Below, piece after piece: positions 1-37,702 of a stretch of DNA of 37,702 nt. The notes beneath the pieces are model-generated. The model ran no database searches, had not been told where the DNA came from, and was given only the letters and a program-made list of their open reading frames with translations. Position 1 is the stretch's first letter; each line of letters opens with the position of its first letter. The stretch is from a virus: positions 1 through 37,702 of the IMG/VR virus record IMGVR_UViG_3300030107_003074; one strand, written 5' to 3'. The position numbers and the translations under genes are program-made.

Positions 1-465
1 GTTTCTGACTAAAGTAGCCATTACTTTTTTGTCTTGTTTTAGTTCATTTAATGATTTTTTTAAAACTAAACCACGTTCTTTTAACAAAGTTTGTTTTATA
101 GTTTCTTTGCCAAATAAACTTAATGTCTCTACATCTTTGCTGCCAGCTTGTAGTGCCTCTCTTATGTAAAATGATGCCTCCACAACACTGCTGGGATTAG
201 ATTCTTTTAATACTTGCATTACACTAAGGTGCAAAGCTGGATCATCTACCATTCTTCCTACTAATGCTGCATAATGATCTGGTACTTTATTATTTAACCA
301 AAATCCCCATGCATCATCACTTAATTTAATTAAATCAGATGCATCTCTAATGACAGATGATCTTTCTGAGAGCATTCCAATAACTCTGTTTAGATAGCCT
401 GGATCAACTCTTAAAATTTTTGCAACATCAGAAGCCTTAGCAGTGCCAGCTCCAACATTTACCAT
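1..465. repeat. Terminal direct repeat, left copy
   Basis: This segment is repeated in direct orientation at the other end of the window with no indels and 8 substitutions (at 31, 97, 181, 247, 295, 337, 370 and 388). Every substitution falls on a third codon position of the gene it encodes. The simplest reading is that the contig wraps around a circular or terminally redundant genome and that the ends come from two co-occurring variants. A true physical duplication is less likely but not excluded. Confidence 0.95.
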
Positions 466-2079
466 CATAGCCTCCACCATAACCTCAGGTGCAGTCCATC
501 CATCTATTTCTCTGCGCACTGATGCATTTAGAGTAATTTTTTGTGACGGATCATTTTTTTTAATTCTTTGAGCTAATCCTAATCGTTGGTGTCCATCTGC
601 AATAAAATATGTACCATCAGCTTTTTGCCAAACCATTACTGTTTGTGCCATATCAGGATTCCAAACTTTTACATCTTGTAATTTTTGTGAAACTCCTAAT
701 GAATCACCATCAGTTTTAAATTGAAATGTTTTTGCATCTACTTTTATTTCATCTGGTGCTAACTCTTGATTTCTTAAAATAGTTCTAGTTTCTTTAACTG
801 TTGGTATTAAATCAGTTTCTACAACTTTCATTTCTTCACCAGTTAATAATGATTTTTGTGCCTCTAATTCATTTATAGTTTCAACTTTTTTGCCTTCTCT
901 TGTGTTTGGATAAACTGTTTCTTTGTGAAGTTCTTTTCCAATCTCTATATCTTGTATAGCAGCTTTAATTTGTGGCTTGTCTAATATTTGTGGTGCTATT
1001 TGTTCTATAAACAAAATGTGTTCGTGTGGTTGCAGTTTATTAATATTATCTAATATATAATTTAAAGTTTCAGTTGGATTTAATTGAGCTGATTTTTTCT
1101 TAAACTCACGACCAATTATTTTATTTCTTAATTTAGGACTTAATTTTGCCAATTGTGTTTCTAAAGTTGAAAAGGTTATTTTTCCATCTTTAATAACAGT
1201 TTTGCCAAAAGTTCCACGAATTACACCACCAAAAATTGGACCAGCAACCGCACCACCAATTGTAACCATGCCAATATTTGCAGCAGATGTTTTTAAAGTG
1301 TAATTTTCATCACCCATTCTTTCTTTAAATGGAAGTATTTGGCTTTCAACTAATGATTGACCAAATAAACCCATAGCAGAACCTATTGCAGCTTCTCTTA
1401 ATAAAAAAGCTGGCCAAGTTGCACCGCCTGAAAAAGCAGCTAAAGGTAGTGTTGCAATAAATGCTGGATCTGTGAAAGCTGCAACTGACATTCCAGCCAT
1501 TGGAGCAAGAGCTTTGCTAACTGCATTTCCTTTTTGATATTGAGAATATAAAGCAGTTTTATATTCAGATGCTTGCATTCTTTTTAGAGTTTCATCTACA
1601 TAATGTTGATAATCTTTAAATTGTTTTCTTCTTGGATCTTGTCGATCTAAATTGCCTATAAAATTTTGTACCTCACGATTCATAAATTCTAATTTTTTTT
1701 CATAAGGTAAATCTTCAGGTAACTGCAATGGATTTATAACCTGGTTATCTTTATAACTATTGTTATATGCCTCATTTATAGGAACATTAGAATTCATACT
1801 TTGTTGAAATGAAATCCAATTTTGTATATCTTCCTCAGTATCTCTACCAAATGATGCATATTCCATTGGATGTCTTATTTTGGCCTCAGGAAACAATGTT
1901 TGAAAATCACTTAAAAAATCATCAGCAATTTTATATTCATTTAAAGCAGCTCCAACAGTATGATGCCAATTCATGTGATTGTTAAAATTTTGAGCAGCCA
2001 CATCATAAAAACTTTTTGGAGTTAATTTTGCTTGAGAAACATTATTAAGACTTACGTTGCTTTTTAAAAATCCAGTCAT
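1..2079 (-). CDS. Giant ejection-type virion protein with ParB-like domain, N-terminal part
   Basis: The frame opens with ATG at 2079 (TAATG overlap with the stop of the 754-residue gene) and stays open to base 1. Because bases 1-465 match 37238-37702 in the same frame, it continues into the gene at 35906-37702, giving a joined protein of 1136 residues. Residues about 185-300 are Gly/Ala-rich and hydrophobic, as in phage proteins that insert into the host envelope during DNA ejection. Residues 514-523 read ADGHQRLGLA, the signature of a ParB/sulfiredoxin-like domain (GxxR-type loop), followed by a helical region resembling the ParB HTH. The position after the gp13/14/15-like genes matches T7 gene 16. 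Seen: the motif, the open frame and the position. Inferred: injection with the DNA. Whether the ParB domain is a nuclease or only binds DNA or CTP is unknown. Confidence 0.8.
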   Translation of the reverse strand, partial: MTGFLKSNVSLNNVSQAKLTPKSFYDVAAQNFNNHMNWHHTVGAALNEYKIADDFLSDFQTLFPEAKIRHPMEYASFGRDTEEDIQNWISFQQSMNSNVPINEAYNNSYKDNQVINPLQLPEDLPYEKKLEFMNREVQNFIGNLDRQDPRRKQFKDYQHYVDETLKRMQASEYKTALYSQYQKGNAVSKALAPMAGMSVAAFTDPAFIATLPLAAFSGGATWPAFLLREAAIGSAMGLFGQSLVESQILPFKERMGDENYTLKTSAANIGMVTIGGAVAGPIFGGVIRGTFGKTVIKDGKITFSTLETQLAKLSPKLRNKIIGREFKKKSAQLNPTETLNYILDNINKLQPHEHILFIEQIAPQILDKPQIKAAIQDIEIGKELHKETVYPNTREGKKVETINELEAQKSLLTGEEMKVVETDLIPTVKETRTILRNQELAPDEIKVDAKTFQFKTDGDSLGVSQKLQDVKVWNPDMAQTVMVWQKADGTYFIADGHQRLGLAQRIKKNDPSQKITLNASVRREIDGWTAPEVMVEAMMVNVGAGTAKASDVAKILRVDPGYLNRVIGMLSERSSVIRDASDLIKLSDDAWGFWLNNKVPDHYAALVGRMVDDPALHLSVMQVLKESNPSSVVEASFYIREALQAGSKDVETLSLFGKETIKQTLLKERGLVLKKSLNELKQDKKVMATLVRN

Positions 2080-4343
2080 TAGTTATTTAAAATTTCATTT
2101 TTTATTTTGTTCATATTAATAACAACAGCTTGTTTGTTTTCATCCATGTAAATTTCTTCAGACATTGTTGGGTTGCCATTGATTAATAGATATTGGTTGT
2201 CTCCTATAAAATACAAATTTACATCTGGTTCACCAAATAAATCTTCTGCTTTTGCTGGCTCTGTGTATTCTTCTCCTTCATCGTTTCTTAACACTTCAAC
2301 TATTTGTTTTCCTCCCGTTGCTTTTAACAATAATTCATCATCCATAATTCTCGATAGGATGCTTGCAAAATCAGGATTTTTATCCAATGGGTTTATTGTT
2401 GATTTTTGATTTGGTAAAAAATCAGGAATAATTGTAGTAACATCAAAATAATCTTGTAAGCCACCTTTGCCGTCATGGTGACCAGCAGCAATTTGTAAAC
2501 TTTCCTTCCACAAATTATTTGCTAGATTAGTGTCTGCTGGATTTTCTTGACTTGTTTTATTTAATAAAGTTGGTTCTTTTAATAATTTTCCATAAAAAAT
2601 TATTTCTGCACTATCAAATACTTGTTTGTATAAATTTGTATCATCACTAAAAGTGTTTAAACGAAAAACATCTAAAGATAAGGATGTTTCAGATAATTTA
2701 GTTCCTTCTTTTCTTGGATCAAAATTTTTAAAAATATCTTTGTTTTCTTCACGGTTCATTAAAACATGTGCATCAATTGCATTTTCTAATTCAATTGATG
2801 GACCATTTATTGACCTTAAAGTAGCAACATGAGCTAATCCAGTATAACCAGACAATCCTACTTCATTAAAAGCTAATGGTGCATTTTCTGAACCAGCAAT
2901 ATCAGTTATTGCTGCCATTGTTTTAGTTATTTCAAGTTTATTTCCACTAGCAAATATTTCATTTATTTGATTACGTTCCTCAGGTAAGAAAAATTGTGGC
3001 AATTTTTGATATGTTTCAGCAACGTGTGGTACTATTAATTTTCTATTTAATAATTCTGTTGGTTCAAAATTTTCAAAATCAATAACTGCAACATGTGCGT
3101 TATTATTTTTAATATTACTTGTTTGGGCTATTCCTAATAAATTAGATTCTTCATTTTTCTCTCTAAAAACCTTAATTTTTTCTAAGGCTTTTTGTCTATA
3201 CATATTTTGAATATTAAAATTTTCTGTTCCAGTTGTAGCTGCTAATTCTTCAGTAAAATATTGAATGCCAGGATAAAACTGTTCTTGAGTTTTATCTTCA
3301 TCACCTTGTGCCATATAGCCATTTTCTAATTCTAAAGTTGGTTTATTTAAAAAAGGTTGGACATATTCATAGGTGTCAAAAGCACTTTCTAATTCAAAAA
3401 TTTTATCATCTATATTAGGCTTGCCATTTGCTTTTAAAGTTTCATTTATAATTTTTGCCTGGTCAATTAAACTATTCACACTATCTACATTAAATGAAAA
3501 ACCCTCTTTTAATGGATCTAATGCAATATTAATTTTATCTAAAATTTCATTTTTTTGACTTGTCAACATTGTGTTAGCTGCTGATGCATTACTATTTTTA
3601 GTCGCATTTGCTTTTGATCGTAATGCTATTAAAACTTTTGGCTCAAGATTGTTGTATTTTTTTTTCTTATCTAATTCTAAAAATTGATCAACATTGGTAT
3701 CAATAAGAAAATTTGCTTGTGCATATTCAAATTCATTTTCAAGAGTTTGTCTGTATGATTCTTCAGTTACACCTCCTGGTATAGTTCCAGCATCCAGTTC
3801 CATTTGATAAAAACTATTAGGTCCAGTAAAATATGTTTGATAATCTTTATTTTGCAAATCTAAATTACCAGTTATCATTTCATTAAAAACTTCATTTTTT
3901 TTAAGTTCTATTGAATCTTTAAATATTTTTGCACTATTTGTTCTAATGTTTTTACCAATATCAATTTTGTATGCACTGTTGTGTCTTAATGCATGTTCTT
4001 CAACACGTCTTTTTACATTATTGTTTTTAATATTTGCAGTTGTGTTGGTTAGCAATTCATTAGTAGCTGTTTCATAAGACAGCATACCTTCGTCATAATT
4101 ATTTAATTTATTATGATCTACAATAATTTGATTAAGATCTTCATTGTATTTAGTTGTTTGCTCAATAAATTCCTTATCCTCTTGCATTGATCGGTGTCGT
4201 TGCTCAATCTCCATTGTTGTATTTAGCAATTGTTGTTGACCTTCAAATACAGCTTGTCCAAAATTACCTTCTAATTTAGCAGTTGGAACAGACGATTGTT
4301 GTTTTGAAACATTAACCTGAGATTTATATAATTTAATAGCCAT
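2079..4343 (-). CDS. Internal virion (ejection) protein, T7 gp15-like position
   Basis: A 754-residue, largely hydrophilic and helical protein rich in Asn, Lys, Glu and Gln, with no catalytic motif that I can see. It sits between the gp14-like small protein and the giant ParB-containing protein, which is the place of the gp15 core protein in T7-like phages. Large helical proteins in this position form the internal core and are ejected with the genome. The start ATG at 4343 lies 4 bases after the stop of the upstream gene, and its own stop overlaps the next start as TAATG, so the genes are probably translationally coupled. The role rests on synteny and composition rather than on a recognised domain. 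Confidence 0.65.
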   Translation of the reverse strand: MAIKLYKSQVNVSKQQSSVPTAKLEGNFGQAVFEGQQQLLNTTMEIEQRHRSMQEDKEFIEQTTKYNEDLNQIIVDHNKLNNYDEGMLSYETATNELLTNTTANIKNNNVKRRVEEHALRHNSAYKIDIGKNIRTNSAKIFKDSIELKKNEVFNEMITGNLDLQNKDYQTYFTGPNSFYQMELDAGTIPGGVTEESYRQTLENEFEYAQANFLIDTNVDQFLELDKKKKYNNLEPKVLIALRSKANATKNSNASAANTMLTSQKNEILDKINIALDPLKEGFSFNVDSVNSLIDQAKIINETLKANGKPNIDDKIFELESAFDTYEYVQPFLNKPTLELENGYMAQGDEDKTQEQFYPGIQYFTEELAATTGTENFNIQNMYRQKALEKIKVFREKNEESNLLGIAQTSNIKNNNAHVAVIDFENFEPTELLNRKLIVPHVAETYQKLPQFFLPEERNQINEIFASGNKLEITKTMAAITDIAGSENAPLAFNEVGLSGYTGLAHVATLRSINGPSIELENAIDAHVLMNREENKDIFKNFDPRKEGTKLSETSLSLDVFRLNTFSDDTNLYKQVFDSAEIIFYGKLLKEPTLLNKTSQENPADTNLANNLWKESLQIAAGHHDGKGGLQDYFDVTTIIPDFLPNQKSTINPLDKNPDFASILSRIMDDELLLKATGGKQIVEVLRNDEGEEYTEPAKAEDLFGEPDVNLYFIGDNQYLLINGNPTMSEEIYMDENKQAVVINMNKIKNEILNN

Positions 4344-4347
4344 GTGT

Positions 4348-4812
4348 TTATCCTATCATTCCAGCATCTGAAGCACCGCCAAGCAACGTACCAGCTGCCC
4401 CAAGCCTAGATCCATATTTGGCATACTTGCCACGTTGTATAGAGGCTGCACCTTGAAATCGTGAACGGCCAGCTTGATTTTGTAAATTAGCTTTTTCTAT
4501 GTTTGCGTTGTATTGAATTAAATTTTGATCTATTTCAAATTGTTCTTGGTTTTGTTCTAAAATTTCTAATACAGTTCCTGATCCAAGATCAACACCGCCT
4601 CCAGCAAAACCAACTCGAACATCACCCTGGACACCTTCAAATTGATCTCTAAGTCTTGTTTTTTCTAACTGTGCTTTTTGCTGTACGACAATGGCCTCAT
4701 TTTCTGCATTAACTGCATCCATTTCATAAAGCTGCGCATTGTAGTTTGCTACTCGTTGTGCTTGTCTCCCAGCCTGTATCTGAGAAAATGCCATCACTGT
4801 TGCTGCTGCCAT
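4348..4812 (-). CDS. Internal virion protein, T7 gp14-like
   Basis: A 154-residue protein. Residues 1-30 are Ala/Gln-rich and mildly hydrophobic, the middle is a long predicted helix or coiled coil (Glu/Gln/Asn-rich), and the tail is Gly/Ala-rich (AAGTLLGGASDAG). A short helical protein with a Gly/Ala-rich end, placed directly downstream of the acetyltransferase-like gene and upstream of a gp15-like gene, matches internal virion protein B of T7-like phages, which helps form the DNA translocation channel. The start follows the preceding stop by one base. The family call rests on order, length and composition. Confidence 0.65.
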   Translation of the reverse strand: MAAATVMAFSQIQAGRQAQRVANYNAQLYEMDAVNAENEAIVVQQKAQLEKTRLRDQFEGVQGDVRVGFAGGGVDLGSGTVLEILEQNQEQFEIDQNLIQYNANIEKANLQNQAGRSRFQGAASIQRGKYAKYGSRLGAAGTLLGGASDAGMIG

Positions 4813-5245: not shown

Positions 5246-8200
5246 CAAATGTATTTAATCGAGGGAACAGTGCCACAACATTTAATGGTAATGGCTGTTC
5301 TTGTTTTACAACTATATGTCCGTCTGTTTCATAATCACCACGAAACTCAACATCTTTATCACCAGTGTAGTAGGGTATAGATGATGTCAATGGTAATGCT
5401 GAAGTACGGTACGTTAATAATTCTAAATTTTGTAAGTTAGGCCCAACTGATCCACCCATAGACCGATCTACTCTCACTGTTACTCCATGAATACGTTTTG
5501 TTTTGCCCTGGGCCGTTCCATCTTGTGATCCTGATTCTATTCTCATGGTTTCCAAGATTGAATCATATTGCAATCCAACATGCACTTTTTCACCATGATC
5601 ATCTAATGTTATGTTGCCTGATGCCACTGTTTCATCAGTGTGTGTTGCACCGTTGTTTAAGACGTTACACAATTCACCTTCTAGGTGATGCAGCCTGGTT
5701 ATAGTTAATGTCTTGCTGCCATCATACGTTAAACCACTATCAAGAAAGAATGCATCCTCATCATCATTGCCGTAATCAAATGGTGTTAAAAATTCTACAT
5801 AGTGAACTGTTGCACCATTGATGTATCGTTCAACAATCATATACAATTCATCTTCTGCATTTTCAGTTGGTATTGTTGCAATTGTTTTTACTTTTGCATG
5901 TGTTAACCATTTATGAGTTGTCTTTGTTGTACTAACAGTTCCTGGATCTAAATAATCTCGTAATTGATAATTTACACCAGCAGTTTGATAATCTTTAAAT
6001 ACAAATTTGTTTTTTAAACGAAAACTATAATTAGTTATAGGATCGACTTTGTATGGCACATTTTTATTTAAACCAGTTAGTTTGTGTGTGCTGCTTAATG
6101 GATAATAATAAATTTCTTCATCTTCACCAAACCCATGGCCAGTTGCATAAAATACATTATTAGATTTATTAAAACCTAAATAAATATAATGCGTTTTGCT
6201 ACCAGTCCCTGATGTAATATCTATAACTGGTGTACCAGCTGTAGCATCTTCAGGTGTCAACGCTAATTTAATAGTGTTAGCATCAACAACAATTACAAAA
6301 TAAAATACGCCTTGTGATATACCTCCAACTGGTGTTTCAGTTGTGTAATAAGTTACTGGATCACCTGTAGATAATCCATGTGAACTTATGGTAATTGAAT
6401 CTTCACCAGTATCAACTGCTGTAAAACTTAATTTTTGTGTAACTGTTGTTTTGCCAGTATCACAATATCCACCAAGGATGTGTCGATGCCAGGCTATAAC
6501 ATTTTCTGTACGTTGATATGTCAATCCAGCTAACACACCATCAGTGCGCACAACCCATAAAATAGAAGCTGGCTCTTGTTGGTATGCAAAGTCAACAACC
6601 AGGCTTTCAGTTATATGGTCAGCAAGAACTGTTAAATCAGGTGCAATGTAGTTATCACTATCGTAGTTATATGTAAGTTCTCGTATTTTGCGTTTAGCAC
6701 GATGTATAAACAAGACAAGATTGCCAACTGTAATAGCATCTTTGTTTGCACTGCCGTAAGCTGATTGTTTACGAATATTAATGTTAGTAGGGGATAGTCC
6801 ATTAACACTATCTGATCCTGTTACTAAAAATTCTGCACCCGTTGTACCAATCAATAATGATCGTGATGCAGCTAAATAACGTATGGCATTCACTTTGTTA
6901 CTTGCAATGGTAAAGTTCATTGCATCATCTGCATCTGTGCCTTCTGTAAAATTTTCGTAATCACCAGATTGTGACAACCACAATGTTTGTGGATTATTGT
7001 TTGTGCCAGCAAATGCTAATCGTTGTTCAAAAAACGATACACAAGATGGATAATTGCCTGTACCTAAATTTAATACTGGATTGTTAAGTTTTGTAACAGT
7101 TCCCGTTGATCCACTAAATGAACTATAAGCCGATGTATCAACATTAGTGCCAGTGCTATCTTGTATTTCAAAATGTTGATCAGGGCCAGTTAATGTACCT
7201 GAGACAAATGTTGTGTAAGCAGATGTATCAATGTCAATACCGTTGCCGTTTTGTAAATTAAAAGTAGTAGTTGATCCAACGGTTCCAACTTTAAAACTGT
7301 TACCATTTAATTGTGTCATACCAACTACATCTGAAATATCAAAACTGTCACCAGCTACTAATCCATGAGCTGCTGATGTTGTAACCACACCAGGACTTGC
7401 TTTTGTAATACCACTTATAGTTATAACATTCTTTTGTTCCCCAACTTTAAAAACACCACCATTAAATTGTGTCATGCCACCAATGTTTGCAAATGTAACA
7501 AAATCACCTTTGCGTAAACCATTATCTAAAATGGTTGATACAACTCCAGGATTAGCTTGTGTGATGCCTGATACAATAAAATCAGTTCCCGTTGTTAGTG
7601 TTGGTGTTGAAAATGTCCATGATGTGTGTGCAGTTCGTGATAGTTTACGGATTGGAAAACTAGGATGTGTAATGTATAAAACATCAGCTGATTGTGCGTA
7701 TTTTAAATCAGGCAATGAATCAAAACCGTATGGTGATGCAATTTGGTATATTGGGTAGACAACGCCACCCGATGCATACGTTGTTAATGATGATGTGTCA
7801 AAGTTTGTTCCATCTGTATTTAATAATTGAAACGTAGTTGATGATGGCACTGTGCCAACTCTAAATTGTCGGCCATTTAATTCTGTCATGCCAACAATGC
7901 CATCTAATATAACATAATCACCAGCTGATAATCCGTGTGTAGCAGATGTAACAACACCTGGATTGGCTTTAGTAATAGCTGATATGTTTAAACCAGTTTT
8001 TGTAATAATGCCGTTGTCTTTATAAAAACGTACATATTGATCACCAAATTCAAGAACATACGTTTGCGTTGTTGAAAATTCAAACGGTATTAATCTATAT
8101 GCTCTGCCATCAACAATAGTTTGATTAGCTTCGGCAATAAATTTAGTGCCTGGCCGTCTAGCAGCAGTACCATGTGGATAGACAATCATGTTTTCAACTG

Positions 8201-24162: not shown

Positions 24163-24402
24163 ATGAAACACACACCAAAAGAAAACGGCTGGCTGTACGT
24201 TGCATTTAACATGGATCCAGTGATGAAGGAGAACTTTGACGGCATGATGAATGATTTAGTCAAAGACCTTGGAATGAAGAAAAAAAAGATAATTTACAAA
24301 TTAGTGCTGCGTGAGTGGCTAAACACGAAAAAAAAACCTTCTAGGATGCACGAGGATGAAAAGATTGAGGGCAGCCCATACCAGGGCCACCCCCCAAATT
24401 AA
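24163..24402 (+). CDS. Small protein, possible ribbon-helix-helix
   Basis: 79 residues. After a short strand (GWLYVAFNMDP) come two helices (VMKENFDGMMNDLVKDLG and a following KKKIIYKLVLREWL), the layout of a ribbon-helix-helix DNA-binding protein. It ends in a polar tail. TGGAGA precedes the ATG. The stop converges with and overlaps the integrase stop by four bases. A regulator or excisionase-like role is possible given its place beside the integrase, but nothing more specific is visible. Confidence 0.5.
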   Translation: MKHTPKENGWLYVAFNMDPVMKENFDGMMNDLVKDLGMKKKKIIYKLVLREWLNTKKKPSRMHEDEKIEGSPYQGHPPN

Positions 24403-25613
24403 CCATTTTCTGCGTAAAATTCATTTAATTTATTAATTTGCTTTTCATGTTTGACGGGATCAACAATGTACTTCACATATTTTTTGTGAGTAAATCCAAT
24501 GTTGGTATGACCAATTTGTCTAGTCACATCAGCTGGATCCCAAATCTTATTCATTTGGCTAAACAAAACACTGGCATAATAGTGTCTCAATGAGTGCAAG
24601 CAGCCATGCCAGGACAAGCCTAATTGTTTTTTAACTCTATTAAAATTATCTTTAGCAGTTGCATGAGGGATCCATGTTTTGTTTTTACCAAACACAAACA
24701 CATCATCTGAATCTGAGTGTTGTTGCCACTGTTTTAATTTACTTAATAAATTATCAGAAACAGTAATTGTTCTTGATGCAGCTTCTGTCTTACCATCTTC
24801 ATTACTGTCATCACTACAATCAATCAATTCTGCCTTACCATTTTTTCTACGACTGACAACGTGGTCAACTGTAATTTCATTACTATTCCATCCAATTCTG
24901 CTCCACATCAAACCAGCCATCTCTTGCCACCTTAATCCAGTTTGAGATAAAAACAGAAACATTAATGAATAAAGACCAGGTGCATTATCAATAATTAATT
25001 TCATGTCTGATTTTTTATAAACTGGTGCTGGTTTAATTTTACGTCTGCCAGGTTTATATGTATATAATCGAAGTGGATTGGCATCCATTAATGGTTTTGG
25101 AATCTTACCATTTACAACTGGAGGATTTATACATGCATCAATACATGCTTTTAATGTATCTAACACACGACCAATTTTACTGTTTGAACATCCCTTAGCC
25201 AACAATTCATTTACAATGATCTCACATGAGTTGGGCTGCAAATCTTTCAAAGGAATATTAATTATAGATGTTTGCGCAATGTGACCATCACAATTATAAA
25301 CTTGCATTTTGTATTCATCATGGCTTAGCTGGCCCTGGTTGTATTGACTTTCTTTTTTTAATTTAAATAATTGAATTGCTTTTGCAACTGTACGACCACT
25401 AAAAAATTTACCAACACCAACTTTATTTATATCATTGACACTAGCATAAGCATCTAGCATGGCTTGTTGTTTGGCATTGGGTAAGTTTTTGTATTCTTCG
25501 TTGTTTGGATTAAATCGTTGATAATGATATTTGTTTGTATCAGGATTGTGTGCTTTAACTAAGTAAGCAACACGGCCCAAAGAGTTTTTATATTTCTGTA
25601 CTACGGCTGTCAA
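24399..25613 (-). CDS. int: Tyrosine-family integrase
   Basis: 404 residues. Catalytic residues seen: R228 (TGLRWQEMAGL), probable K275 (EDGKTEA), H340-x-x-R343 (LHSLRHYYASVL), H369 (QIGHTN) and Y379 (HKKYVKYI). Residues about 80-180 form the core-binding domain. The start is TTG 25613, chosen because AGGAGG lies about five bases upstream. It faces away from a tRNA 3'-end sequence 210 bases upstream that is the likely attP core. It should integrate the phage into a host tRNA gene. Convergent with the early operon. Confidence 0.93.
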   Translation of the reverse strand: MTAVVQKYKNSLGRVAYLVKAHNPDTNKYHYQRFNPNNEEYKNLPNAKQQAMLDAYASVNDINKVGVGKFFSGRTVAKAIQLFKLKKESQYNQGQLSHDEYKMQVYNCDGHIAQTSIINIPLKDLQPNSCEIIVNELLAKGCSNSKIGRVLDTLKACIDACINPPVVNGKIPKPLMDANPLRLYTYKPGRRKIKPAPVYKKSDMKLIIDNAPGLYSLMFLFLSQTGLRWQEMAGLMWSRIGWNSNEITVDHVVSRRKNGKAELIDCSDDSNEDGKTEAASRTITVSDNLLSKLKQWQQHSDSDDVFVFGKNKTWIPHATAKDNFNRVKKQLGLSWHGCLHSLRHYYASVLFSQMNKIWDPADVTRQIGHTNIGFTHKKYVKYIVDPVKHEKQINKLNEFYAENG

Positions 25614-33392: not shown

Positions 33393-35909
33393 TTATTCAA
33401 ATATAGACGGTAATGAATTTGGTGTTTTATCTCCTGGTTTCCACCAATAAGAATTTTTCTCGTCTCTTATTGTTTTGTTAATTTTTCTTCTATTTTTTTG
33501 ATAATAGTTATCATCTGTGAGTTCTTGTATGTATTCAAATAAATATCGTTCTAATAATAATCTCATATACCAGGCTGAACTACCAGGTGTATTTCCTTTA
33601 ATAAAACTAGATATATCTGCACCCAAATTGACATCTTTGCCAGATAAGAAATCAACCATATTTCCAGCAGTTAAATCTAAAAATTCAAATCCTAATGCAG
33701 CAGTTGGTCCAATAAATTCTGATGCTCTACCACCAACTGAGTCATGGCTGTAACGACCTCCAAATATCATGTCACCAGCAAAACCTAATCCTCCACCATG
33801 CAACATGCTATCCAACCAATATCTAGGATCATTCCAACGATCATCAACACTAACATTTTTACCTTTGAAAACATCTTTTAATACACCAGACATTGCACCA
33901 AACAAAGTTGTAGTAATAAGTAAAGGCAACAAATAACCCATTTTACCTTTAATAGTTTTTCTCCCTAAACCTCGTGCTATATGAGTAAACATAAAAGTTA
34001 ATGGAAATTGTTTAAACTGTAATACACCTCTTGCTATTTCACCAATAGGTGTTCCTGGCTTTGTAACATTTCCACCTATTGTTGCACCTCTTGCATTAGC
34101 AACGGGTACGGCAAAATTTACAAACTCTTGCGCAGCATGGTTATATTTTAAAGCTATCTGTGCATCAACTATATCATCAGGTCTTAAATATAAAGCACCT
34201 TGCCATTTTGGATCGTATTCACCAGCATCAAATAATTTTGTATTACGAATAACATCCCAATCAGCATCTGTAATTCCATAATTTTCTAAATAGTCTGCAA
34301 ATCTTTTATTTTTTTTACGCATTTGTTTTAAAGACATATCAACATTTCTAGCAGTAAATGCTTGAAATTCTGTAAATGCAGCCCATCGACCAGCTTGAGT
34401 CATGTGTGATAATTGTGTAGTTCTTAATATAAAATCTGATATTCTTCTTGCAAATTCGTGACTTTCCACTTTATCAGCAGACATACGAGCTGCACCAGAT
34501 GCATAAGTGCTCCAATGTTCAGCTGCTGCACCAGAAGTACCAGCTATTTTAATTCTTGTATTATTGTCAACTCCTGACAATGGACTTAAAAACATTTTTA
34601 AATTTTCAGCCATTGCTTTTGCCTGGGGCATTCCAGCAAAAGATGCAGTTGCTCTAGTTAAATTAAAATCACCAATTGCTAAAAATGCTGCTGATCCTAA
34701 AAAAGATGCAGTTGCAATTGATCTAAAACTAGCACCATATTTTGCCATTTTAGGATTTACTGGAACATTTAAATCACCTTTAATATATAAATACATGGCA
34801 TCAGCTGAATTTAATGATGATGCAGTTTTTCTTTTAGCCTCATCTTTTGGAACTGCATTTTGTGTATTAGCATATTTTTCGGACTCAAATCTCATTTTAC
34901 GCATAAAATTATCAGGATTAGGCCCCATGACTTGCATTAAACCAATATCACGAGACATAGAGTCTATGTGCGCAAGCATTGAATTAAAAACATCAGTTGT
35001 TCCAAATTGATCATTGTATTTCAACCAGCTGTCATAATCTTTAAAATATAAAAATTTATGATCTAAACGAGTGTTAGCACGGCTTGGGCCAAATCCTCTT
35101 GTCTCTTTATTTAGATAACCCTCACTTACAATATTGTCGTAAACTTGCTTTAATGCAGTTTTTAAATCTTTGTCACCAAAAACTTTGCCAGTTGTGTAAT
35201 CAATCATTTTGTTTTGATCTAACAATGGAATAATATCATCTACCCATTTTTCCTTAGGAACTAAATTTACTTTTATTTGATCGTGCACTGTTGGCACTGT
35301 CCAAAATTTATTTTTTGGGATAGAACCTCCAGCTTTGTTAAACATTTTTCTTGCTTTTTCAGCTACACGAAACCAAGTTTCAGCCAACTCTCTTGCATTT
35401 TGATTACCAGATGATCCTAATTCATATATTTCTTTACCCATATCATGCATTGTGGCTTTATTTCTTGTGCTACCTACTAATGTGTGTCTAAATTCTTTTA
35501 AAACATCAAACCATTCTTTGTCTAATTGCCCCTTAACAACACGCAATCTAGTTTCTACATTTAAAAATTTATTAATTCCTTCTGGTGTTTCCATAAAACC
35601 AATAATTCTTTTTAATGCCTCTCCTGGATTTATGTTGCCTTTGCTATCTCTGTAAATACTAAACATATATTCCATTGCCTCGTTATCTACTTTACGTTGT
35701 AATAATGCATGACGTTTTTTATTAGCTGCTTTGTATTCAAAACTTTCAAAAGCATCTTTTGCTCCTTTTAAAGCAGCTGCATCAGGATCATCACCTAAAT
35801 TTAAATATTTTTGTGTATGTTCAGTTATTAAATCTTTTAACAAACTTTTTTTATCATCAGGTATAATGCCTTCTTTAGATGCATTATCTATACAATTAAT
35901 CAAACTCAT
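33393..35909 (-). CDS. Second ejection-type internal virion protein
   Basis: 838 residues. The N-terminal 400 residues are helical and charged; around residues 395-420 there is a hydrophobic Ala/Ser-rich region (FRSIATASFLGSAAFLAIG) and around residues 645-675 a second hydrophobic stretch (MGYLLPLLITTTLFGAM). Large internal proteins of marine podoviruses have this mix of helical bulk and membrane-active segments. It follows the giant protein with an ATGA overlap. The C-terminus (NSYWWKPGDKTPN) is polar. I see no lysozyme or transglycosylase motif. Assigned as an ejection protein by size, position and composition. Confidence 0.65.
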   Translation of the reverse strand: MSLINCIDNASKEGIIPDDKKSLLKDLITEHTQKYLNLGDDPDAAALKGAKDAFESFEYKAANKKRHALLQRKVDNEAMEYMFSIYRDSKGNINPGEALKRIIGFMETPEGINKFLNVETRLRVVKGQLDKEWFDVLKEFRHTLVGSTRNKATMHDMGKEIYELGSSGNQNARELAETWFRVAEKARKMFNKAGGSIPKNKFWTVPTVHDQIKVNLVPKEKWVDDIIPLLDQNKMIDYTTGKVFGDKDLKTALKQVYDNIVSEGYLNKETRGFGPSRANTRLDHKFLYFKDYDSWLKYNDQFGTTDVFNSMLAHIDSMSRDIGLMQVMGPNPDNFMRKMRFESEKYANTQNAVPKDEAKRKTASSLNSADAMYLYIKGDLNVPVNPKMAKYGASFRSIATASFLGSAAFLAIGDFNLTRATASFAGMPQAKAMAENLKMFLSPLSGVDNNTRIKIAGTSGAAAEHWSTYASGAARMSADKVESHEFARRISDFILRTTQLSHMTQAGRWAAFTEFQAFTARNVDMSLKQMRKKNKRFADYLENYGITDADWDVIRNTKLFDAGEYDPKWQGALYLRPDDIVDAQIALKYNHAAQEFVNFAVPVANARGATIGGNVTKPGTPIGEIARGVLQFKQFPLTFMFTHIARGLGRKTIKGKMGYLLPLLITTTLFGAMSGVLKDVFKGKNVSVDDRWNDPRYWLDSMLHGGGLGFAGDMIFGGRYSHDSVGGRASEFIGPTAALGFEFLDLTAGNMVDFLSGKDVNLGADISSFIKGNTPGSSAWYMRLLLERYLFEYIQELTDDNYYQKNRRKINKTIRDEKNSYWWKPGDKTPNSLPSIFE

Positions 35910-37702
35910 ACGCAGTCTTTTAACCTCTCTATAATAGCTCTATCATTATCAACATCGTCTATAAATTTTTTAACTGTCATTTCTTTGTTTACAAGATTGC
36001 CATCAACAGCAACACTTTCAACATTTAACATTTCATCTTTTGGTATTTCATTTAACAAAATATTTTCATAAGTTTCTTGAAACAATTTTTTATCAGCAGC
36101 TTCATATTCATCGTAAATTTTTCTTTGTTCTTTGTTTAATTTACTTATGCCGCCATATTTTTCTGCAAATCGTTTTGATTTTCCTTTATTTTTAACAGCA
36201 TCTAAAAATGTTGCATGGTGTATTTGCAACTCAAACCCTAAGCCATCAGGTGTGATTAATTGAAAATGATAAGCTCTATAATTAGTATCTGTTCTTGGAT
36301 CTTCAAACATATCTTTTTCACGCACAATTTTAAAATCTTTGCGTAATTCGTTTTTAATTTTTTCAACATCAGCCATTTGTTTGACAATAATTCGACCAGC
36401 TAAAATATCTGGTTCGTATGCAGCAGTGTATGTTTTTCCAAAATCATCTTGTTTGCCTGATACATTTTGGATAATTTTTTCCCGTTTTTTGACTCTTATT
36501 TCTGTTGTTGCATTTTCGTATTTAGAGCTTATACTTACAAGTGTATTCCTAACATTATCAATGTTGTTTTCGGCAAGTCTAATCAATGTTGGTATGTCAT
36601 CGAATACATGATATAATTGACTATCAAATATGGCATTAAAATCACCAACACGCATTTTAGGATCAGTTCGAGACTGGAATGACTCAGCAGTAGCTTTAGC
36701 CGAAACAAATGATGGAGGTGCATCTGTTGTTCTATTTAGTAGATTAAAATCTTCCTGGGTAGAAACTGAGGCAGTTTCAGCAGCTAAACTACTTTCATTA
36801 CCTTTGCTTGAAAAATCACGTTCTGACTCAATCCTTAAAGATTCAAAATCTTGATCAGCATTTTTATTAAATTCTAATTTATTATTAGGATTATCAAATT
36901 GATTTAAGACTATATTATCTTCTATGATGTTTGGTTTTTGAGAAACTTGTTGTTGCGTTTCCTCAATTGGTCTAATGCGTTCACTTCTGCTTGGAGAAAC
37001 CCCCTCGTAATTGCCTGACTCAATTGTCTCTCGGACAACTTGTTTAAAAGTTTCAATTGCTTCTCGTTTGCTGCCATCGGCCCACTGCCTGGCTGCTGCG
37101 TTAAGTCCATCTGAGATTGGCCCTTTTTTGGTTGCAAGGATTTCAATGGCATAGATTGCTTGGTCATATATTTGTTCCTGGGTTTTGTTGTAGTTAGTAT
37201 CTAATTTGTTTTTACCTTTTTCAATTATTTTTTGTTCGTTTCTGACTAAAGTAGCCATTACTTTTTTATCTTGTTTTAGTTCATTTAATGATTTTTTTAA
37301 AACTAAACCACGTTCTTTTAACAAAGTTTGTTTCATAGTTTCTTTGCCAAATAAACTTAATGTCTCTACATCTTTGCTGCCAGCTTGTAGTGCCTCTCTT
37401 ATGTAAAATGATGCCTCAACAACACTGCTGGGATTAGATTCTTTTAATACTTGCATTACACTAAGGTGCAAAGCTGGATCATCAACCATTCTTCCTACTA
37501 ATGCTGCATAATGATCTGGTACTTTATTATTCAACCAAAATCCCCATGCATCATCACTTAATTTAATTAAATCTGATGCATCTCTAATGACAGATGATCT
37601 TTCTGAAAGCATTCCAATAACTCTATTTAGATAGCCTGGATCAACTCTTAAAATTTTTGCAACATCAGAAGCCTTAGCAGTGCCAGCTCCAACATTTACC
37701 AT
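35906..37702 (-). CDS. Giant ejection-type protein, C-terminal part with RelA/SpoT-like domain
   Basis: This frame runs off the window end; the ATG at 37702 is internal, not the real start. Joined with 1-2079 it gives residues 539-1136 of the giant protein. After a helical region and a disordered Asn/Ser/Gln-rich stretch (about residues 790-890), a RelA/SpoT nucleotidyltransferase-like domain lies near residues 930-1045. Its motifs are D970 in DILAGRIIV, NYRAYH (1012-1017), and E1029 in FELQIHH. These align with the D, GYxSLH and ExQIRT signatures of (p)ppGpp synthetases, including both metal-binding acids. A basic KKREK segment precedes it. Activity and substrate are unknown. The stop overlaps the next gene as ATGA. 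Confidence 0.8.
   Translation of the reverse strand: MVNVGAGTAKASDVAKILRVDPGYLNRVIGMLSERSSVIRDASDLIKLSDDAWGFWLNNKVPDHYAALVGRMVDDPALHLSVMQVLKESNPSSVVEASFYIREALQAGSKDVETLSLFGKETMKQTLLKERGLVLKKSLNELKQDKKVMATLVRNEQKIIEKGKNKLDTNYNKTQEQIYDQAIYAIEILATKKGPISDGLNAAARQWADGSKREAIETFKQVVRETIESGNYEGVSPSRSERIRPIEETQQQVSQKPNIIEDNIVLNQFDNPNNKLEFNKNADQDFESLRIESERDFSSKGNESSLAAETASVSTQEDFNLLNRTTDAPPSFVSAKATAESFQSRTDPKMRVGDFNAIFDSQLYHVFDDIPTLIRLAENNIDNVRNTLVSISSKYENATTEIRVKKREKIIQNVSGKQDDFGKTYTAAYEPDILAGRIIVKQMADVEKIKNELRKDFKIVREKDMFEDPRTDTNYRAYHFQLITPDGLGFELQIHHATFLDAVKNKGKSKRFAEKYGGISKLNKEQRKIYDEYEAADKKLFQETYENILLNEIPKDEMLNVESVAVDGNLVNKEMTVKKFIDDVDNDRAIIERLKDCV
37238..37702. repeat. Terminal direct repeat, right copy
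   Basis: The right-hand copy of bases 1-465, differing at 8 third-codon positions (7 silent, one Ile/Met). It encodes residues 539-693 of the giant ejection protein. Removing one copy leaves a circular map of 37237 bases. Confidence 0.95.

What the first reader, a model, noticed from the sequence alone, without database searches (positions are those of the whole stretch)
35906..37702. RelA/SpoT-like domain in a giant ejected virion protein that also carries a ParB-like domain
Joining the frame across the window ends gives one 1136-residue protein with membrane-active N-terminal segments, a ParB-like motif (residues 514-523) and a RelA/SpoT-like domain near residues 930-1045. The latter keeps the D (970) and E (1029) that bind metal in known synthetases. 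Its gene lies where T7 has its ejected proteins. If it enters the cell with the genome, the phage could deliver an alarmone synthetase, or a toxSAS-like enzyme that modifies tRNA or nucleotides, before any phage gene is expressed. This resembles the 'polyvalent protein' idea of multi-domain proteins injected to counter the host, but a nucleotidyltransferase in a podoviral core protein is unusual.
Basis: partly seen in the sequence, partly recalled or inferred. Interest (0 to 1): 0.88.

Follow-up and report, generated by a model that had tools for sequence, protein, structure and literature searches.

The report
Alarmone-synthetase cargo in phage ejection protein
A temperate marine short-tailed phage carries an intact-looking alarmone synthetase (the enzyme type that makes the bacterial 'starvation signal') on the end of a protein that is probably injected into the host with its DNA; related phages carry other toxin-like enzymes, or nothing, at the same spot, which looks like an exchangeable cargo bay.

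Summary
The window's ends overlap by 465 bp (8 mismatches, all in register with codon third positions). The joined minus-strand frame encodes 1136 aa, and relatives align to it end to end. Residues 941-1034 match Pfam RelA_SpoT above the curated cut-off (E 1.6e-8). An AlphaFold model (pLDDT 85.5) has the small alarmone synthetase fold. K943, D970, Y1013, H1017 and E1029 are invariant in 19 sequences as little as 21% identical to the window. The "ParB" part is a motif only, at residues 494-499. The phage is not a lytic T7: it has an integrase and no T7 RNA polymerase, and its virion genes follow epsilon15/phiV10 and pelagiphages.
The main new result is comparative. The protein belongs to a large family in one syntenic ejection-protein slot. 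Among 107 complete non-redundant members, the same C-terminal place holds a RelA/SpoT-type domain (48), a zeta-toxin kinase (24), nothing (25) or something else (10), and never both enzymes. Some RelA-type domains match the toxin Tas1. Near-identical genes differ only in this cassette, and a cysteine-ended tail follows nearly all cargo types.
RelA/SpoT in phage polyvalent and MuF proteins is already published, so this is a new variant of a known kind. Ejection, activity and product are inferred.

The parts
35906..37702 (-). C-terminal part (residues 539-1136 plus stop) of the 1136-aa ejection-slot protein
1..2079 (-). N-terminal part (residues 1-693) of the same protein; bases 1-465 repeat 37238-37702
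1..465 (.). left copy of the terminal overlap (8 mismatches to the right copy, all third codon positions)
37238..37702 (.). right copy of the terminal overlap
36032..36604 (-). RelA/SpoT-type synthetase domain, residues about 905-1095 (Pfam match 941-1034 = 36215-36496)
36488..36490 (-). K943, invariant; in the R-x-K that aligns with the ATP-side motif of YwaC/RelP
36407..36409 (-). D970, invariant catalytic Asp (DILAGR, syn2-like)
36392..36394 (-). R975, near-invariant (D-x4-R)
36266..36280 (-). Y1013-R-A-Y-H1017, syn3-like acceptor motif with the His typical of RSH enzymes
36230..36232 (-). E1029, invariant catalytic Glu (ELQIH, syn4-like)
35909..36028 (-). conserved C-terminal tail, residues about 1097-1136, ending ...IIERLKDCV
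466..780 (-). first part of the conserved family core (residues about 434-538), with the ADGHQR motif
583..600 (-). ADGHQR (494-499), the ParB-like motif; ParB fold not confirmed
37241..37702 (-). second part of the core (residues about 539-692); matches phrog_10691 and phrog_21 profiles
1210..1512 (-). hydrophobic Gly/Ala-rich stretches (residues about 190-217 and 265-290), possible membrane-active segments
   Evidence: hydropathy only
2079..4343 (-). 754-aa upstream protein in the gp15-like (tunnel) slot
   Evidence: gene order and synteny; no PHROG match
4348..4812 (-). internal virion protein (phrog_418), gp14-like slot
33393..35909 (-). 838-aa virion structural protein (phrog_684; homologue of phiV10p20 and of a pelagiphage 'internal virion protein'); starts with a 4-nt overlap, so no immunity gene lies between
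24399..25613 (-). integrase (temperate lifestyle)

Best explanation
The gene encodes an ejection (internal virion) protein of a temperate short-tailed phage, which carries an active small-alarmone-synthetase-type enzyme as exchangeable C-terminal cargo between a conserved core and a conserved C-terminal docking tail. On infection the protein leaves the virion, its hydrophobic segments help bridge the envelope, and its C-terminal part reaches the cytoplasm ahead of or with the DNA. There the domain moves pyrophosphate from ATP to a guanosine nucleotide and makes a burst of (p)ppGpp-type alarmone before any phage gene is transcribed, pausing host growth and tilting the cell towards phage takeover or lysogeny. 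Shown here: the joined gene, the domain, its fold, the conserved catalytic residues, purifying selection in relatives, the virion-gene synteny, and the exchange of cargo in relatives. Inferred from epsilon15, T7 and P22 biology: packaging and ejection. Inferred from motifs: activity and guanosine as acceptor. Inferred only: the effect on the host.
For: Domain: Pfam E=1.6e-8 above cut-off; profile against PDB, Rel synthetases 3.6e-11 and Tas1 only 1.7e-4; AF2 pLDDT 85.5, Foldseek top hits RelP/SAS2 and RelQ, with CapRel also high. Catalysis: K943, D970, Y1013, H1017, E1029 and Q1031 invariant in 19 sequences 21-35% identical to the window; dN/dS 0.02-0.15 in the domain among relatives of the L017 type. 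Product: syn2 (A-G-R), syn3 (Y-R-A-Y-H) and, in the L017 type, syn4 (Q-I-R) resemble guanosine enzymes (AVR, SxH, IR), not the GxN of (p)ppApp synthetases (motifs from PMC12226406). Slot: gp12 - 144 aa - gp14 - gp15 - THIS - 838 aa - tail fibre, conserved in relatives and in pelagiphage HTVC035P, whose protein in this slot is annotated 'putative internal virion protein'. Epsilon15 ejects its internal proteins (PMC8954989). Cargo: RelA-type 48, zeta 24, empty 25, other 10 of 107, never both; cassette exchange at DNA level; shared tail.
Against: No virion proteomics or activity data. No cultured phage with this cargo was found. The window's RelA/SpoT subgroup changes only 3 times on the core tree, so it is inherited fairly stably; the freely swapped cargoes are the zeta, Tas1-like and A7 types. 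The ATP-side motif is reduced compared with RSH enzymes: only K943 is invariant. syn4 in the window is I-H, not I-R. Slot proteins of phiV10 and HTVC035P show no detectable sequence similarity to this protein, so the position, not homology, links it to known ejection proteins. tRNA or another acceptor cannot be excluded.
Confidence: 0.55

Rival explanations
1. Same delivery, but the enzyme is a toxSAS-type toxin: it pyrophosphorylates tRNA CCA ends (FaRel2, CapRel) or makes (p)ppApp (Tas1, Apk2), so it arrests translation or drains ATP instead of signalling by (p)ppGpp.
For: CapRel is among the top Foldseek hits (E 3.9e-8). Sister proteins carry a domain whose profile hits Tas1 at E=6e-18 in the same place. 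The alternative cargo is a zeta-toxin-type kinase with intact Walker A, Asp and Arg motifs.
Against: The window's own group scores far better against Rel synthetases than against Tas1 (3.6e-11 against 1.7e-4) and has His, not Asn, in syn3. No immunity gene adjoins it.
Confidence: 0.3
2. A polymorphic-toxin-like weapon: temperate virions deliver the enzyme to kill or stall competitors, while the lysogen is protected by an immunity factor.
For: MuF-Apk2 phage toxins are of this kind, with IapK and Aph1 immunity (PMC12226406). The window phage has an integrase.
Against: In 90 of 93 cargo-bearing loci the next large virion gene starts within 100 nt (median 4-nt overlap), leaving no room for an immunity gene. 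No alarmone hydrolase was among the 25 Pfam families listed for the window's other ORFs (11 further families were not shown).
Confidence: 0.12
3. The domain acts in the producing cell (late infection or induction), for example to shut down the host before lysis, and is only incidentally in a virion protein.
For: The gene sits in the late structural operon and would be made in quantity late.
Against: A fusion between a conserved virion-slot core and a conserved tail is not needed for that. Many copies of an unchecked synthetase made late would hurt virion production.
Confidence: 0.12
4. A catalytically dead domain kept for structure or nucleotide binding.
For: Reduced ATP-side motif; 25 of 107 relatives do without any cargo.
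Against: Catalytic residues invariant in proteins as little as 21% identical; dN/dS 0.02-0.15; replaced by other enzymes with intact active sites.
Confidence: 0.07

Closest known systems
Phage polyvalent proteins with RelA/SpoT domains (Iyer et al. 2017, PMC5512222)
   Same: Large, probably injected phage proteins with conflict-related enzyme domains, among them RelA/SpoT; zeta-type kinases are also recorded fused to MuF.
   Different: [quoted passage not shown] Here it lies in the ejection-protein slot of marine temperate podoviruses, one cargo per protein, exchanged as a cassette, with a conserved C-terminal tail.
MuF-Apk2 phage polymorphic toxins (PMC12226406)
   Same: Alarmone-synthetase-fold domain at the end of a virion-associated protein of temperate phages.
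   Different: Apk2 makes only (p)ppApp and is followed by immunity genes. Here the window's domain is RSH-like in its motifs and no immunity gene follows. The carrier has no MuF match in Pfam.
Tas1/Apk1 type VI effector (PDB 6ox6)
   Same: Same fold; a sister cargo group in the same slot hits it at E=6e-18.
   Different: The window's own group is closer to Rel synthetases; delivery would be by virion, not by type VI secretion.
Small alarmone synthetases RelP/RelQ (6fgj, 5ded)
   Same: Best structural matches; shared catalytic Asp, Glu, Tyr-x-x-x-His.
   Different: About 18-20% identity; fused into a 1136-aa virion-slot protein; reduced ATP-side motif.
Epsilon15/phiV10 and HTVC035P ejection-protein slot
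   Same: Same gene order; the neighbour (838 aa) is homologous to phiV10p20 and HTVC035P gp47; slot proteins also end with a near-terminal Cys.
   Different: Their slot proteins (600 and 489 aa) show no sequence similarity to this one and are too short to hold the same core plus cargo.

Membership tests
RelA/SpoT synthetase (SAS-type) domain, PF04607 | Profile match above the curated cut-off | tested here: met
   35.2 bits against 27
RelA/SpoT synthetase (SAS-type) domain, PF04607 | Synthetase (Pol-beta NTase type) fold | tested here: met
   AF2 pLDDT 85.5; Foldseek RelP/RelQ E about 1e-8, TM up to 0.58/0.69
RelA/SpoT synthetase (SAS-type) domain, PF04607 | Catalytic Asp and Glu, acceptor Tyr-x-x-x-His | tested here: met
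   D970, E1029, Y1013, H1017 invariant
RelA/SpoT synthetase (SAS-type) domain, PF04607 | Full ATP-side R-x-K...S-I motif | tested here: inconclusive
   K943 invariant; R941 in the window and near relatives L088, L090 and L091 only; rest degenerate
RelA/SpoT synthetase (SAS-type) domain, PF04607 | Makes (p)ppGpp | not testable with these tools
   needs enzyme assay
Tas1/Apk (p)ppApp synthetase | Closest sequence relative is Tas1/Apk, with syn3 G-x-N | tested here: not met
   Window group prefers Rel and has His in syn3; the sister group A6 does match Tas1
MuF polymorphic toxin | MuF domain at the N-terminus | tested here: not met
   No MuF in Pfam scans
MuF polymorphic toxin | Adjacent immunity gene | tested here: not met
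   Next gene overlaps by 4 nt; same in relatives
Phage polyvalent protein (Iyer 2017) | Several fused conflict-related domains in one phage protein beside virion genes | tested here: inconclusive
   One enzyme domain certain; ParB-like second domain not confirmed; virion-gene context met
DdrB-like ParB domain | Profile similarity to DdrB/ParB | tested here: not met
   hhalign probability 0.2% against P1 DdrB (single sequence, so a weak test); no ParBc in Pfam
Podoviral ejection protein | Position between the gp14/gp15-like genes and tail fibre genes | tested here: met
Podoviral ejection protein | Present in the virion and ejected | not testable with these tools
   needs proteomics or tomography
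T7-type (Autographiviridae) phage | Single-subunit RNA polymerase gene | tested here: not met
   0 of 24 incl. the window; positive control 2 of 3

The most novel reading that the evidence does not exclude
One ejection protein of a widespread group of short-tailed phages is a general delivery vehicle with an exchangeable cargo bay. Between a conserved core and a conserved cysteine-ended docking tail it carries exactly one nucleotide-modifying enzyme: a (p)ppGpp-type synthetase, a Tas1-type synthetase, a third NTase-like group, or a zeta-type kinase. The enzyme is injected with the genome, without immunity genes, and acts before any phage transcription; cargoes are swapped by recombination in the flanks.
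Probability: 0.5. Interest if true: 0.8.

Novelty: new variant of a known kind. Interest (0 to 1): 0.63.

Why it matters
If delivered and active, these phages manipulate host nucleotide signalling within seconds of DNA entry, before phage transcription. The nearest cultured relatives by tail protein infect SAR11 (Pelagibacter) bacteria, whose cells are so small that even a few enzyme molecules per virion could shift nucleotide pools (my estimate from general knowledge, not measured). Natural pairs that differ only in cargo (L116/L121) would let one ask directly what an injected enzyme gains a phage, and the shared tail offers a testable docking or loading signal.

Tried and rejected
Searches with single sequences found no RelA-bearing relatives; profiles of the core did. 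NCBIfam gave nothing useful; PADLOC gave only a weak candidate, PDC-S33 E=4.8e-6. The ParB reading was tested against P1 DdrB and Pfam and left unproven. A first AF2 run with 11 sequences gave pLDDT 60.8, and the second with 19 gave 85.5; only the second is relied on. My iterated RelA profile drifted into divergent groups, so I split them: A5 (the window's group) confirmed by Pfam and PDB; A6 confirmed only through Tas1; A7 joined only by a profile comparison (88%, E 3e-6) with no PDB match, so its 10-11 members count as RelA-type provisionally. The T7 lytic model was rejected. A chimera or misassembly was rejected because relatives align end to end. Homology of the slot protein to phiV10p19 or HTVC035P gp48 was not found. 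Literature searches found no paper describing this cargo slot, but only open-licence papers were searched.
Full report
THE THING ITSELF. The window is a 37,702-base virus record. Its first 465 and last 465 bases are the same sequence with 8 mismatches, all spaced by multiples of three, so the contig closes on itself and records two strains. Joining gives a minus-strand ORF of 1136 aa. Relatives L088-L091 (35-37% identical over the full length) align from residue 12 or 18 to 1136 without a break, so the join is real.

THE RELA/SPOT DOMAIN IS REAL. Pfam RelA_SpoT matches residues 941-1034 at E=1.6e-8, above its cut-off. A 19-sequence alignment of the domain hits solved GTP pyrophosphokinases at E=3.6e-11. 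The AlphaFold model (pLDDT 85.5, pTM 0.77) finds RelP/SAS2 and RelQ/SAS1 as best PDB matches, with CapRel, RelSeq, Rel and Tas1 also matched. K943, D970, Y1013, H1017, E1029 and Q1031 are invariant and R975 nearly so, in sequences 21-35% identical to the window. In close relatives of the L017 type, dN/dS within the domain is 0.02-0.15. By the motifs of PMC12226406, syn2 (AGR) and syn3 (YRAYH) look like guanosine enzymes rather than the (p)ppApp makers with GxN. The same paper failed to switch specificity by swapping these motifs, so they do not settle the product.

THE PARB PART IS NOT CONFIRMED. The conserved ADGHQR lies at 494-499, not 514-523. Pfam gives no ParB, and P1 DdrB does not match (a single sequence, so a weak test). 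I treat the region 434-692 as a conserved family core of unknown fold, matching phrog_10691 and phrog_21.

WHAT PHAGE THIS IS. The late genes run terminase, portal, capsid, tail tubes A and B, two small internal virion proteins, 754 aa, 1136 aa, 838 aa (phrog_684), tail fibre. An integrase and an ORF with a LexA-type DNA-binding domain point to a temperate phage. T7-type RNA polymerase is absent from the window and 23 related records, while the same search finds it in two autographivirus controls. Integrase is found in 12 of those 24 records. The 838-aa protein is homologous to phiV10p20 and to proteins of other podoviruses, and tail tube B is nearest to pelagiphages such as HTVC010P and HTVC035P. 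HTVC035P has the same gene order, with a 489-aa 'putative internal virion protein' in this slot. The G+C of 35.7% fits such a host, but the host is not known. Epsilon15 and P22 eject their internal proteins on infection, and T7 gp16-C reaches the cytoplasm (PMC8954989). Ejection of our protein is inferred from this position.

THE CARGO SLOT. A profile of the core found 479 relatives in IMG/VR and 35 in GTDB genomes, mostly Alphaproteobacteria. Among 107 complete non-redundant proteins, 48 carry a RelA/SpoT-type domain after the core, 24 a zeta-toxin-type kinase (Pfam E 1e-14 to 1e-19 in those scanned; active-site motifs intact), 25 nothing, 10 something else; none carries both. The RelA-type domains fall in three groups: the window's (A5); A6, whose profile hits the type VI effector Tas1 at E=6e-18 and A5 at 97.6% by hhalign; and A7, weakly joined. 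Near-identical genes differ only in the cargo. L116 (Tas1-like) and L121 (zeta) are 97.8% identical in DNA up to base 7152, unrelated for about 830/940 bases, then 95.9% identical again; their N-terminus plus core is 99.5% identical and the last 45 residues 98%. Four further pairings (L099/L100, L127/L134, L127/L142, L123/L133) break within about 45 bases of the same left point. On the core tree the zeta label needs 19 changes, Tas1-like 18, A7 10 and empty 15, but the window's RelA/SpoT group only 3: its cargo is inherited stably, and the rapid exchange is in its cousins.

THE TAIL AND THE MISSING IMMUNITY. Nearly all cargo types, and the empty forms, end in a short tail with a cysteine in the last 12 residues: 100 of 103 against 22 of 423 other long ORFs. 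It scores as a separate segment behind other cargoes. Even the dissimilar slot proteins of phiV10 (...VACFLRG) and HTVC035P (...INCRIGK) end this way. I read it as a docking or loading signal; that is inference. The next virion gene usually overlaps by 4 nt and starts within 100 nt in 90 of 93 cargo-bearing loci, so no immunity gene follows, unlike MuF-Apk2.

MECHANISM. Best supported: an ejection protein whose C-terminal cargo reaches the cytoplasm and makes a burst of guanosine-type alarmone before transcription. Shown: gene, domain, fold, residues, selection in relatives, synteny, cargo exchange. Inferred: packaging, ejection, activity, product, effect. The main rival is a toxSAS-like action on tRNA or adenosine nucleotides.

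WHAT IS KNOWN. Iyer et al. 2017 (PMC5512222) list RelA/SpoT among phage polyvalent domains, with DdrB-ParB in Helicobacter prophages and with MuF, and zeta-type kinases fused to MuF. MuF-Apk2 toxins are assayed (PMC12226406). Hence a new variant: new carrier, new phage group, demonstrable cassette exchange, an apparent docking tail, no immunity gene.

Noticed in passing
L116:7153-7981 and L121:7153-8092: Cassette exchange between near-identical phages: Tas1-like cargo against zeta cargo, with 98% and 96% identical DNA on either side.
   Followed up: yes
window:35909-36028; L166 phiV10p19; L167 gp48: A near-terminal cysteine ends nearly all family members and also the dissimilar slot proteins of phiV10 and HTVC035P: a possible common docking signal.
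   Followed up: partly
L148, L126, L083, L141, L127 (alignment A7): A third conserved cargo group (RDSYRFKT ... WGWR ... PNGQLVEWYLP) with no Pfam or PDB match, weakly linked to RelA-type domains.
   Followed up: partly
L120:4999-7470: 97.6% identical to L116 in DNA but the ORF stops inside the Tas1-like domain (824 aa): a broken cargo or a sequencing error.
   Followed up: no
window:1-465 and 37238-37702: The two copies of the overlap differ at 8 third codon positions, i.e. two co-existing strains assembled into one contig.
   Followed up: yes
window:5238-8303: Tail tube B homologue of 1021 aa contains four E1_FCCH-like stretches (Pfam PF16190, E 5.8e-29), an unusual insert in a tail protein.
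   Followed up: no
L003 (HQ332136, 'Dunaliella viridis virus SI2'): Recorded as a virus of a green alga, but it has typical podophage virion genes and a cargo-less member of this family; the host entry is probably wrong.
   Followed up: no
L081, L084, L087, L040: The same core, with zeta cargo in L081, L087 and L040; L081, L084 and L087 are long (2100-2700 aa) proteins in Gastranaerophilales and an elusimicrobial genome, i.e. also in gut.
   Followed up: no
window:2079-4343: The 754-aa protein in the tunnel slot has no PHROG, Pfam or phage-record match although its position is conserved.
   Followed up: partly
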